A stretch of DNA of 50,253 nt, from positions 1-50,253 of the forward strand of contig JABDFL010000005.1 of assembly GCA_013286575.1 (NCBI GenBank), in the 5' to 3' direction. A model generated the notes under the pieces. It was not told the DNA's origin. It did not search any database and worked only from the letters and a program-made list of their open reading frames with translations. Below, piece by piece: positions 5,159 through 49,307 of this stretch (position 1 is the first letter of the stretch; each line of letters begins with the position of its first letter). The position numbers were made by a program, and so were the translations under genes. The DNA is from Candidatus Omnitrophota bacterium (GTDB lineage: Bacteria > Omnitrophota > Gorgyraeia > Zapsychrales > Fredricksoniimonadaceae).

Positions 5159-5191
5159 GAAAAAGGGGACACTTTAAAGTGTCCCCTTTTT
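5159..5191 (+). terminator. intrinsic terminator after groEL; self-complementary GGGGACACTTTAAAGTGTCCCC core
   Basis: Perfect palindrome flanked by A-tract and T-tract. Confidence 0.8.
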
Positions 5192-5202
5192 CGTTTTATC
5201 TA

Positions 5203-17904: not shown

Positions 17905-18292
17905 GGCCAAGGTCCTCAAGGCGGTTAAGCAAGCGTACCGTAAACTTGAAAAAAAAGGGCACTTTAAACTAAAGGGACACGTTGAGTGTCCCTTTTTGCC
18001 TTTTGCTCTTTCAATTGCCTTTGTCGGGACCAGGCGCATGCGCGCGGTCAATAAGAAATATTTAGGCCATGATTATGTGACCGATGTCCTGACTTTTGAT
18101 CTGGGGGAGGATGCAGGCGAAATAATCATCTGCCCGCAGGTCGCTTCCGCCAACGCCAGGGCGCATCAAACATCGACGGAAAATGAAATCATTCTATACG
18201 TGGTCCACGGCATCCTGCATCTGGCGGGTTACGATGATCACAAGCCGCATGACATCCTCCAAATGCGCAGGATGGAAAAAGAATTATTATGA
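17858..18292 (+). CDS. ybeY: endoribonuclease YbeY with unusual ~16-aa insertion
   Basis: DVLTFD, VVHGILHLAGYDD motif; overlaps upstream gene; start ATG 17858. Confidence 0.88.
   Translation: MEITLQNLQKKILIPKAKVLKAVKQAYRKLEKKGHFKLKGHVECPFLPFALSIAFVGTRRMRAVNKKYLGHDYVTDVLTFDLGEDAGEIIICPQVASANARAHQTSTENEIILYVVHGILHLAGYDDHKPHDILQMRRMEKELL
17951..17997 (+). repeat. REP-like palindrome inside ybeY (AAAGGGACAC-GTTGA-GTGTCCCTTT)
   Basis: 10-bp perfect stem at 17971-17980/17986-17995; flanking AAAAAAGGGCACTTTAAACT resembles the post-groEL palindrome. Confidence 0.5.
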
Positions 18293-45806: not shown

Positions 45807-47084
45807 ATGGAAAGAATAGCGATAGTCGACGGTATACGCACCCCGTTTTCAAAAATGGGGGCGAATTTCAATTATTTGAGCGCCCAGGAATTAGGGCGTA
45901 TTGCCGCGCGTGAATTGATTGAGCGCATGAGCTTGGATGTTAAGCTCATTGATGAGGTGATTTTCGGGTGCGTTGGCCAACCAGCGGACGCGGCCAATAT
46001 TGCCCGCGTCATTGCTCTTCTTGCCGGTGTTCCTAAAACCACACCTGCTTTTACCGTGCATCGCAATTGCGCTTCGGGCATTGAAGCAGTGGCCCAGGCC
46101 GCCATCAAGATCAGGGCAGGGGAAGGTGTCTGCTATTTGACCGGCGGTACTGAATCTATGAGCAATATCCCGTTTTTTCTTTCCAAAGAGTATCAGGAGA
46201 TCCTCACTGAAATTTCGCGCGCGAAGACCCTGCCGGCCAAATTGCAGGGCTTTGCCAAAATACGGCCGCATCATTTTTTGATGCCGAAGATCGGGTTGCA
46301 GTTGGGCTTGACCGACCCTGTCTGCGGCCTGAACATGGGGCAGACAGCTGAAGTATTGGTCAAGGAATTTGGTATCACCCGCCGTGAACAGGATGAATTT
46401 TCTTTAGCCAGCCATCAGAAAGCCATTGCCGCGCGGGCGATTCTTCGAGAGGAAATCGTTCCTGTAATTCCGGGCCCAAAATATAAAGAAGCGGTGTTGG
46501 ATGATAACGGCCCGCGCGAAGGCCAGACGATCGAAGCCTTGGCCAAATTAAAACCTTTTTTTGAAAAAGGCACGGGGACTGTGACTGCGGGAAATTCCAG
46601 CCAGATCACAGACGGTGCTTGTGCGATTTTAGTGATGGGCGAATCACGCGCCAAGGAATTAGGCTTGAAACCTTTGGGGTACCTGCGTAGTTTTGCCTTT
46701 GTGGGAGTTGAACCTAACCGCATGGGCATCGGCCCGGCGCATGCCATACCCCTGGCGTTAAAGAAGGCAGGCATGAAATTCTCCGATATGCAGGCTTTTG
46801 AGATCAACGAAGCTTTTGCCGCACAGGCTTTGGCTTGCGTGCGCGCCTTAGCATCAGATAAATTCACCAAAGACTTCGGTTACGAAGGTTATACCGGTGC
46901 CATTGATCCGGCGAAGTTAAATGTCCATGGCGGGGCCATTGCCCTGGGCCATCCGGTTGGTGTTACAGGAGCAAGGATCATATTAACCATGCTCAAACAT
47001 TTAAACCGCGCCAATCTCAATGTCGGCATCGTGTCTTTATGTATCGGCGGCGGCCAGGGGGCTGCAGTAGTTTTAGAGAGATAG
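45807..47084 (+). CDS. acetyl-CoA acyltransferase (thiolase)
   Basis: NCASGIEAVAQA, GGTESMSNIP, NVHGGAIALGHPVGVTGARI, CIGGGQGAA. Confidence 0.95.
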   Translation: MERIAIVDGIRTPFSKMGANFNYLSAQELGRIAARELIERMSLDVKLIDEVIFGCVGQPADAANIARVIALLAGVPKTTPAFTVHRNCASGIEAVAQAAIKIRAGEGVCYLTGGTESMSNIPFFLSKEYQEILTEISRAKTLPAKLQGFAKIRPHHFLMPKIGLQLGLTDPVCGLNMGQTAEVLVKEFGITRREQDEFSLASHQKAIAARAILREEIVPVIPGPKYKEAVLDDNGPREGQTIEALAKLKPFFEKGTGTVTAGNSSQITDGACAILVMGESRAKELGLKPLGYLRSFAFVGVEPNRMGIGPAHAIPLALKKAGMKFSDMQAFEINEAFAAQALACVRALASDKFTKDFGYEGYTGAIDPAKLNVHGGAIALGHPVGVTGARIILTMLKHLNRANLNVGIVSLCIGGGQGAAVVLER

Positions 47085-47087
47085 CGT

Positions 47088-47175
47088 ATCATCGGGTGAC
47101 CGAGGGAGGGGCATCCCTAGCGAGCGCAGGCTTTTGCGAGCACGCTGGGGAAACCCGAGGGCAGGACCCGATGAT
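47088..47175. repeat. 88-nt structured palindromic element between thiolase and fadJ
   Basis: Outer 10-bp perfect stem ATCATCGGGT/ACCCGATGAT, GGG/CCC, inner 8-bp stem CCCTAGCG/CGCTGGGG, apical CGCA/TGCG. Confidence 0.6.
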
Positions 47176-47192: not shown

Positions 47193-49307
47193 ATGTCTGT
47201 TTTCTATAAAGAAGAAAATAATGTCGGCACCATCACCTTTGACCAGCCGGATTCCAAAGTCAATGTTTTAAATTCCGCGACCCTGTTGACGCTGGATAAA
47301 ATGCTCGACGGGCTTAAAGCAAAAAACCTCAAAGCCCTGGTCATCCAAAGCGCCAAGAAAGATATTTTTATCGCCGGTGCCGATATCAAGGAAATTGAAA
47401 ATATTGTTGAGCTGCAGGACGGCAAATCCAAGGCCCAGGCCGGCCAGCGGGTCATGGATAAGATCGAAGACCTGCCATTCCCGACCGTGGCTGTGATTGA
47501 TGGGGTGGCTCTCGGCGGCGGGTGTGAATTGGCCCTGGCTTGCCGTTATAGGGTCATGACCTTTAACACCAAGATCCGTATCGGCCTTCCGGAAGTCAAT
47601 CTGGGTTTTGTTCCGGGCTTTGGCGGCACCTATCGCCTGCCGCGCCTGCTTGGCCTTCAGCAGGGATTAAAAATGATCGTTTCGGCCAGTCCCATCAATT
47701 CTTCAGCAGCCTTCAAGTGCGGTTTGGCTGACAGGCTTTATCCGTCGGTGGGTTTGCCTGATCGCGTTAAGGAATTCATCGAGGAGATTGCCGCTGAGCC
47801 CAACAAGCGCATCTTCAAGCCATATACGCCCAAAGGAGTCCAGGCCTTCCTGGAAAAAAATCCTTTAGGCCAGGGGGTTGTATATAAGGAAACGATCAAA
47901 TCTATCCAAAAGGCAACCAAAGGTTTTTATCCGTCTCCCTTAAAAGCAGTGGAAGTGATACGCAAGACCCTGTATTTGCCCCGGGAGCATGCTTTGGACA
48001 TAGAGTCCAGTGCTTTTGCCGAGCTTGCCATTACACCTATATCAAAAAATCTGGTGAAGGTTTTTTACATGTCGGAGAAATATAAGAAATTAACAGTCCC
48101 AGGTGCTGAAAATATCAAACCCATGCCCATTACCAAGGGCGCTGTGATCGGTGCCGGCATCATGGGGGGCGGAATTGCCCAGTTATTCAGCGATCGCGGC
48201 GTTTGGGCGCGGCTTAAAGATATTAATCAGGATGCGATTGCCAAGGGGCTGAAAGCCGCTTATGACGTCTACGCCCAGGCCATGAAAAGAAAGAAGGCAC
48301 GGCCCTATGAGGTGGCAGCGAAAATGGCGATGATCTCAGGGACAGTTGATTACAGCGGTTTTGCTGACGCGGACATTGCCATTGAGGCGGTGGTTGAGAA
48401 TATGGATGTTAAGAAAAAAGTTTTTGCTGAGGTGAGCCAAGCGCTGTCTTCAAAAGCTATTTTAGCCTCGAACACCTCGTCTTTGTCAGTGACGGAAATG
48501 GCCCGCGCTTCCAAGGACCCCTCAAGGGTGATCGGTTTTCATTTTTTTAATCCGGTGCATCGCATGCCCTTGATTGAGATCATCACCACTGAATTTACCT
48601 CTCAGCAGACCTTGGTTACAACGCTGGAATTTGCCAAGAAATTAGGCAAGACACCGGTCATTGTTAAAGATGCCCCAGGCTTTTTAGTCAACCGTATCCT
48701 TTTAGGGTATATCAATGAAGCCGGACGCCTTTTAGGTGAGGGTGGTTCTATCACCGCCATTGACCGCTTTGCCACCAATTTCGGAATGCCTATGGGGCCT
48801 TTTACTTTATCCGACGAGGTTGGCCTGGATGTGGGGGTGAAGGTCTTACATATTTTGGAGGCTGGTTTGGGCCCGCGTTTTAAGCCTTCAAAGATATTCG
48901 ATGACGTTTTGCCTTTAAAGCTCCTGGGTAAAAAATCAGGCAAAGGTTTTTATATTCATGGCAAGGAACGGGTGGTCAATCCCCAGGTGCAGGCCCTGGT
49001 CCAATCCGGCGGCAGCATTAAAGAAGAGGAAGCTGTGCAGCGGATGATGTATATTATGATCAATGAAGCCGCGATGATTTTGCAGGAGAAGGTGGTGGAT
49101 GGCGCGGATGCCGTTGATATCGGCATGATTTTTGGGACAGGCTTTCCGCCTTTTAGGGGCGGCCTTTTACGCTATGCAGATTCACTGGGAATTGATAAAC
49201 TAGTGGACGGCATGGAAAAGCTGGAAGCCCGTTTCAAAGATGGCCGCTTTAAGCCATGCACGTATATTTTGGATTTGAAATCAAATGGCAAAAAATTCTT
49301 CATTTGA
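47193..49307 (+). CDS. fadJ: multifunctional enoyl-CoA hydratase / 3-hydroxyacyl-CoA dehydrogenase (FadJ/FadB-like)
   Basis: 704 aa; GGGCELALACRYRVM hydratase core, VIGAGIMGGGIAQLFS Rossmann, GFHFFNPVHRMPLIEII. Confidence 0.93.
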   Translation: MSVFYKEENNVGTITFDQPDSKVNVLNSATLLTLDKMLDGLKAKNLKALVIQSAKKDIFIAGADIKEIENIVELQDGKSKAQAGQRVMDKIEDLPFPTVAVIDGVALGGGCELALACRYRVMTFNTKIRIGLPEVNLGFVPGFGGTYRLPRLLGLQQGLKMIVSASPINSSAAFKCGLADRLYPSVGLPDRVKEFIEEIAAEPNKRIFKPYTPKGVQAFLEKNPLGQGVVYKETIKSIQKATKGFYPSPLKAVEVIRKTLYLPREHALDIESSAFAELAITPISKNLVKVFYMSEKYKKLTVPGAENIKPMPITKGAVIGAGIMGGGIAQLFSDRGVWARLKDINQDAIAKGLKAAYDVYAQAMKRKKARPYEVAAKMAMISGTVDYSGFADADIAIEAVVENMDVKKKVFAEVSQALSSKAILASNTSSLSVTEMARASKDPSRVIGFHFFNPVHRMPLIEIITTEFTSQQTLVTTLEFAKKLGKTPVIVKDAPGFLVNRILLGYINEAGRLLGEGGSITAIDRFATNFGMPMGPFTLSDEVGLDVGVKVLHILEAGLGPRFKPSKIFDDVLPLKLLGKKSGKGFYIHGKERVVNPQVQALVQSGGSIKEEEAVQRMMYIMINEAAMILQEKVVDGADAVDIGMIFGTGFPPFRGGLLRYADSLGIDKLVDGMEKLEARFKDGRFKPCTYILDLKSNGKKFFI

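What the first reader, a model, noticed from the sequence alone, without database searches (positions are those of the whole stretch)
47088..47175. 88-nt multi-helix palindromic element between thiolase and fadJ
The 108-nt gap between two beta-oxidation genes is nearly filled by a nested structure. It has an outer 10-bp perfect stem (47088-47097 with 47166-47175), a GGG/CCC helix (47109-47111 with 47154-47156) with a symmetric CAT/AAA internal loop, an 8-bp stem (47115-47122 with 47143-47150) and an apical CGCA/TGCG helix. CCGAGGG occurs on both sides. It could be a structured non-coding RNA or cis-regulator, or a REP/MITE-like repeat.
Basis: partly seen in the sequence, partly recalled or inferred. 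Interest (0 to 1): 0.7.

Follow-up and report, generated by a model that had tools for sequence, protein, structure and literature searches.

The report
Dispersed palindromic mobile element between genes
The hairpin between the two fat-burning genes is one copy of a small hairpin-forming DNA element that has scattered itself through many genomes of this bacterial phylum, squeezing between neighbouring genes and sometimes landing in frame inside them, and is not a switch dedicated to fadJ.

Summary
It is one copy of a mobile palindromic repeat family absent from Rfam. A covariance model finds it in 68 of 386 sampled genomes of the phylum, up to 27 copies each, beside unrelated genes. Four helices, one with a tandem G.A mismatch, are supported by compensatory changes; G.U pairs outnumber A.C pairs 84 to 20, so one strand is the folded one. 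A congener (G004) has the same thiolase-fadJ junction without the element; five more loci have empty sites in relatives. Most copies sit in short gaps between co-directional genes; a few lie in frame inside genes (MutL, class II aldolase), including a second, shortened copy in this genome. Bases just outside the core are complementary within each copy but differ between copies; the empty sites lack that palindrome, so the arms form during or after insertion. No clear target duplication and no mobilising enzyme was found; Y1/REP transposases do not track it. It resembles ERIC and Rickettsia palindromic elements but was not shown to belong to any named family.

The parts
47093..47170 (+). conserved 78-nt core of the element (CGGGTGAC...GCAGGACCCG)
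   Evidence: model R1 90.3 bits, E 4e-18 (this copy is also in the model's training set); homologues in 68 of 386 genomes of the phylum
47088..47092 (+). left copy-specific arm (ATCAT), pairs with 47171-47175
   Evidence: arm absent from the empty relative G004
47171..47175 (+). right copy-specific arm (ATGAT)
47093..47097 (+). helix P1, 5' side, pairs with 47166-47170
   Evidence: 98% of cells paired in A3
47100..47106 (+). helix P2, 5' side (CCGAGGG) with tandem G.A, pairs with 47154-47160 (CCCGAGG)
   Evidence: 5 to 6 of 7 pairs with two-sided changes
47114..47122 (+). helix P3, 5' side, pairs with 47143-47151
   Evidence: all 9 pairs with two-sided changes, 97% paired
47124..47129 (+). apical helix P4, 5' side (conserved CGCAG motif), pairs with 47137-47141 (CGAG motif)
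   Evidence: closing pair G-C/C-G/U-A covaries
45807..47084 (+). thiolase gene upstream (host gene, not part of the element)
   Evidence: Thiolase_N and Thiolase_C
47193..49307 (+). fadJ-like gene downstream (host gene, not part of the element)
   Evidence: ECH_1, 3HCDH_N and 3HCDH

Best explanation
The element is one insertion of a small, non-autonomous, hairpin-forming mobile repeat family. Shown: it is dispersed, multi-copy within genomes, present or absent at orthologous sites, conserved in fold on one strand, and settled mainly in tolerant places (short gaps between genes of an operon, a few in-frame sites inside genes). Inferred: the folded single strand, with its conserved mismatches (tandem G.A, CGCAG/CGAG apex, GR/RCAGG internal loop), is the recognition substrate of a trans-acting mobilising enzyme not yet identified. 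Inferred: the copy-specific outer arms are made when the element inserts, or afterwards, by fold-back template switching that copies the left flank into the right flank. Once in an operon it would be transcribed as a stable hairpin between cistrons and may modulate processing or stability of the mRNA, as ERIC does; that effect is untested here and would be incidental.
For: Dispersed copies beside unrelated genes. Empty sites: window vs G004; hisB-hisH in G026/G011/G028, the locus before a pabA/trpG-type gene in G020/G011, the locus before purD in G026, lysC-cimA in G000/G005, ispG locus in G003. Structure: 25 pairs, 92% of cells paired, 19 pairs with two-sided changes, covariation 0.438 vs 0.129 shuffled, 0/500; strand asymmetry G.U 84 vs A.C 20. 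Copies within a genome resemble one another more than copies elsewhere. In-frame intragenic copies with Pfam domains on both sides, and a second copy in this genome inside an ORF of at least 866 aa. Copy-specific arms: mean arm 2.47 nt vs 0.63 when right flanks are swapped, never above 0.83 in 1000 shuffles; pairing at flank positions 1-4 is 0.89/0.61/0.65/0.49 vs 0.43/0.27/0.26/0.26 swapped.
Against: No mobilising enzyme found; no clear target-site duplication (direct-repeat signal 5.08 vs 4.80 nt). Empty-site comparisons are between species about 75-80% identical in DNA, so loss in the relative is not strictly excluded for a single locus. Several genomes (G042, G250, G237, G011) show conserved longer flanks, so the unit boundaries differ by lineage. 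The G.U/A.C count comes from an alignment fitted on this strand.
Confidence: 0.85

Rival explanations
1. A cis-regulatory RNA (riboswitch or leader) that controls the downstream gene, with several regulon members per genome.
For: Covarying fold with conserved loop nucleotides and a P1-like outer stem of free sequence; in many copies the core ends 3-25 nt before a start codon in sense orientation; sense bias 62 to 30 between co-directional genes, P about 0.001.
Against: Downstream genes are unrelated (fadJ, patatin-like, peptidase, cimA, pyrD, pheT, hisH, sucD and others); 30 copies between co-directional genes are antisense, others are between convergent genes or inside genes in frame; the same-genus fadJ lacks it; copies cluster by genome and not by gene.
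Confidence: 0.07
2. A REP/REPIN-type repeat mobilised by a Y1 (RAYT/TnpA_REP) transposase.
For: Strand-specific hairpin with conserved mismatches, as required by TnpA_REP (PMC8266576); close inverted doublets about 20 nt apart in G039, as in REPINs; Y1_Tnp genes are common in these genomes.
Against: About 78 nt, not 20-40; no constant GTAG or CGTC tag; Y1_Tnp not found in G006 and G008 (both 94% complete, 4-8 copies); none of 20 sampled Y1_Tnp loci has a copy beside it.
Confidence: 0.15
3. About the arms only: they are pre-existing palindromic targets into whose centre the element inserts.
For: Perfect palindromes around many copies, up to 17 bp in G225.
Against: Empty relatives lack the palindrome, e.g. 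hisB end GATTAG-AAAG without CTCAATC; the window site in G004 has four other bases.
Confidence: 0.12
4. A catalytic or protein-binding RNA element that spreads as RNA (retro-mobile).
For: Conserved non-canonical loop motifs on one strand.
Against: No Rfam match even at E 10; no signs of reverse transcription such as tails or target duplications.
Confidence: 0.05

Closest known systems
Rickettsia palindromic elements (RPE)
   Same: About 100-150 nt palindromic repeat, multi-copy, intergenic and in-frame inside protein genes (PMC2229807, PMC10969869)
   Different: Sequence relation not tested; shorter core; copy-specific arms and a single-strand covarying core with tandem G.A are not described for RPE in the passages read
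ERIC/IRU (enterobacterial repetitive intergenic consensus)
   Same: Transcribed palindromic repeat in intergenic regions, forms a long stem-loop, can lie inside genes (PMC2229807)
   Different: ERIC is 127 bp with TA at its termini and target duplication; no clear target duplication seen here
REP/REPIN with RAYT (GTAG- and CGTC-tagged repeats)
   Same: Hairpin with conserved mismatches recognised on one strand, inverted doublets, intergenic with some intragenic copies (PMC3733652, PMC8266576)
   Different: Longer core, no tag, no RAYT association, few copies (1-27 per genome found)
DUF3800-V RNA (Rfam RF02964)
   Same: Compact multi-helix element; one copy lies about 1.3 kb from a copy of this element in G039
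   Different: Different sequence and structure; DUF3800 genes do not track this element

Membership tests
Bacterial MITE-like palindromic repeat (ERIC/RPE kind) | Small multi-copy repeat whose ends pair into a long stem-loop | tested here: met
Bacterial MITE-like palindromic repeat (ERIC/RPE kind) | Presence/absence at orthologous sites (insertion) | tested here: met
Bacterial MITE-like palindromic repeat (ERIC/RPE kind) | Target-site duplication | tested here: inconclusive
   only a slight excess of direct repeats, 5.08 vs 4.80 nt
Bacterial MITE-like palindromic repeat (ERIC/RPE kind) | Terminal repeats shared with an autonomous insertion sequence | tested here: inconclusive
   none noticed around the sampled copies; in G042 the core is cargo of a different MITE with 19-bp inverted repeats
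Rickettsia palindromic element | In-frame insertion inside protein genes | tested here: met
   MutL, class II aldolase-SCP2, PurQ-PurM fused frame, SDR, own genome
Rickettsia palindromic element | Sequence homology to RPE families | not tested
   no RPE sequences were fetched
REP/REPIN (GTAG or CGTC superfamily) | 20-40 nt hairpin with an unpaired GTAG or CGTC tag | tested here: not met
   core 63-120 nt, mostly 73-85; no constant tag in the flanks
REP/REPIN (GTAG or CGTC superfamily) | Associated RAYT (Y1) gene flanked by the repeats | tested here: not met
   (20 Y1 loci sampled)
Riboswitch / cis-regulatory leader | Conserved upstream of one gene family or pathway | tested here: not met
Any Rfam 15 family | Match to a covariance model | tested here: not met
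   (only another element matched)
Integron attC site | GTTRRRY/RYYYAAC core sites and cassette arrays | tested here: not met
   core ends are CGGGT/ACCCG; copies dispersed, not in arrays

The most novel reading that the evidence does not exclude
A phylum-wide family of hairpin elements that mobilise as a folded single strand through an unknown enzyme and, on insertion, write an inverted copy of the left flank to the right, so that every new copy is boxed in a palindrome of its own with no target duplication: an insertion signature different from known transposons and REPs.
Probability: 0.3. Interest if true: 0.75.

Novelty: new variant of a known kind. Interest (0 to 1): 0.5.

Why it matters
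It explains a class of structured intercistronic hairpins in this phylum that could otherwise be annotated as riboswitch candidates, and gives a countable system (empty sites, in-frame copies, copy-specific arms) for asking how very small palindromic elements spread without a known transposase. The arms make a testable prediction about the insertion step.

Tried and rejected
Rfam at gathering and relaxed thresholds: no match. DUF3800 association, suggested by a nearby DUF3800-V RNA: gene distribution does not track the element. Y1/RAYT partner: not found in two copy-rich genomes and not adjacent elsewhere. G042/G033 identical copies looked like an autonomous transposon but are cargo in a separate short MITE. 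Phage or plasmid carriage: no significant blastn hit, and five IMG/VR pattern matches look like chance matches in GC-rich coding DNA. The named-genome scan (genome contigs) gave no answer and then was capped, so organisms cannot be named.

Full report
What is there. The gap between the thiolase gene (ends 47084) and the fadJ-like gene (starts 47193) is filled by a hairpin. As RNA it folds at -49 kcal/mol against a shuffled mean of -33.2 (sd 3.4); none of 200 shuffles does as well. No Rfam family matches it.

It is a repeat family. BLAST of the element in 56 related genomes found clear relatives, several per genome in some. An alignment of 24 copies and a hand-drawn 25-pair structure gave 14 pairs with changes on both sides and a covariation score of 0.329 against 0.136 in shuffles, 0 of 500. 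A covariance model built on it finds the element in 23 of 83 genomes of the order and 68 of 386 sampled genomes of the phylum, with up to 27 copies in one genome. Copy numbers are lower bounds because only some candidates were scored. On 76 distinct copies 92.3% of cells are paired, 19 of 25 pairs have two-sided changes, and the covariation score is 0.438 against 0.129. Sliding the partners by one column drops pairing to under 50%. Both counts are on alignments fitted to or derived with this structure, so they lean towards it.

Anatomy. P1 is CGGGT/ACCCG. P2 is CYGARGG/CCYGARG with a tandem G.A in most copies, replaced by Watson-Crick pairs in G011 (CTTCGGT/ACCGAAG) and shifted in G034 (CGCGAGA/TCGAGCG). 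P3 is an 8 to 9-bp helix that covaries at nearly every pair. The apex carries a constant NCGCAG...CGAGN' motif with N/N' covarying. Between P1 and P2 a GR/RCAGG internal loop is nearly invariant. G.U pairs (84) outnumber A.C pairs (20) on the modelled strand, which points to that strand as the folded one, RNA or single-stranded DNA; the alignment was fitted on that strand, so part of this may be bias.

It inserts. The congener G004 has the same thiolase-fadJ junction, 79-81% identical on both sides, with no element: GATA-AAAC-AGGAG in place of GATAG-[about 100 nt]-AGGAG. Empty orthologous sites were also found for two G006 copies (lysC-cimA, ispG-peptidase) and three G008 copies (hisB-hisH, before purD, before a pabA/trpG-type gene). 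G413 keeps what looks like a decayed remnant at a site where G303 has a copy.

Where it sits. Of 145 located copies (138 distinct cores), crude ORF calling puts 92 between co-directional genes (62 sense, 30 antisense, P about 0.001 for the bias), 8 between divergent and 7 between convergent genes; about 9 are called internal. Many gaps are only a few nucleotides on each side. Neighbouring genes have no evident common function. Intragenic copies in frame were checked: MutL in G006 (between Pfam domains), a class II aldolase-SCP2 protein at the same place in G006 and G026 but in opposite orientations, a PurQ-PurM fused frame in G055, an SDR in G055. The window's own genome has a second, shortened copy (39 nt) in frame inside an ORF of at least 866 aa.

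The arms. Bases just outside the core pair with each other in the same copy, while the sequence differs between copies with near-identical cores: mean perfect arm 2.47 nt against 0.63 when right flanks are swapped between copies (1000 shuffles, maximum 0.83). In the empty sites inspected the palindrome is not present; for hisB-hisH the left arm largely matches the pre-existing end of hisB while the right arm is new. So the right arm looks like an inverted copy of the left flank, which is what fold-back template switching produces (a known mutation class at quasi-palindromes, e.g. PMC7202029). Whether it happens at insertion or later is not decided. In G011, G042, G237 and G250 longer flanks are shared between copies, so there the unit is longer.

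What moves it. Unknown. Y1 transposases do not track it and are not beside it in the loci sampled; there is no constant GTAG/CGTC tag, which REPs of the two large superfamilies have (PMC3733652). TnpA_REP recognises one folded strand through conserved mismatches (PMC8266576); by analogy the conserved mismatches here may be read by an enzyme, but this is inference. Close inverted doublets in G039 recall REPINs. ERIC and RPE are the closest in behaviour (PMC2229807, PMC10969869).

Limits. Gene calls are by longest ORF. Downstream gene names in the text rest on reading the translations except where Pfam is cited.

Noticed in passing
L040:5457-5556 (G039:C106), minus strand: DUF3800-V RNA (RF02964, 72.5 bits) beside a DUF3800 gene at G039:C106:6251-6820, and an inverted doublet of the present element about 640 bp from that gene.
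   Followed up: partly
L106, L107, L108, L113, L123, L124, L125 (G042 and G033): Near-identical short MITE with inverted repeats TAGAACTTATCCCAAAATT / AATTTTGGGACAAGTTCTA carries the element as cargo and occurs in genomes of two different families.
   Followed up: partly
L311:530-640 (G002:C26, lysC-cimA gap): At the site where G006 carries this element, G002 has a different hairpin built on GGTCTTGGACCGTTTC repeats, so the same intercistronic gap was filled by another palindromic element.
   Followed up: no
G006 L036 and G026 L050: The same linker of a class II aldolase-SCP2 protein carries this element in opposite orientations in two genera: parallel insertion or inversion.
   Followed up: partly
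window 5159-5192 and 17971-17995: Perfect 34-nt palindrome GAAAAAGGGGACACTTT/AAAGTGTCCCCTTTTTC, with a related AAAGGGACAC/GTGTCCCTTT hairpin at 17971-17995; possibly another dispersed repeat.
   Followed up: no
G250 (L165-L170): Copies share a longer unit with outer CCCCC/GGGGG arms and sit next to other repeated DNA; the first look counted about 1600 candidates in this genome, so related repeats may be abundant there.
   Followed up: no
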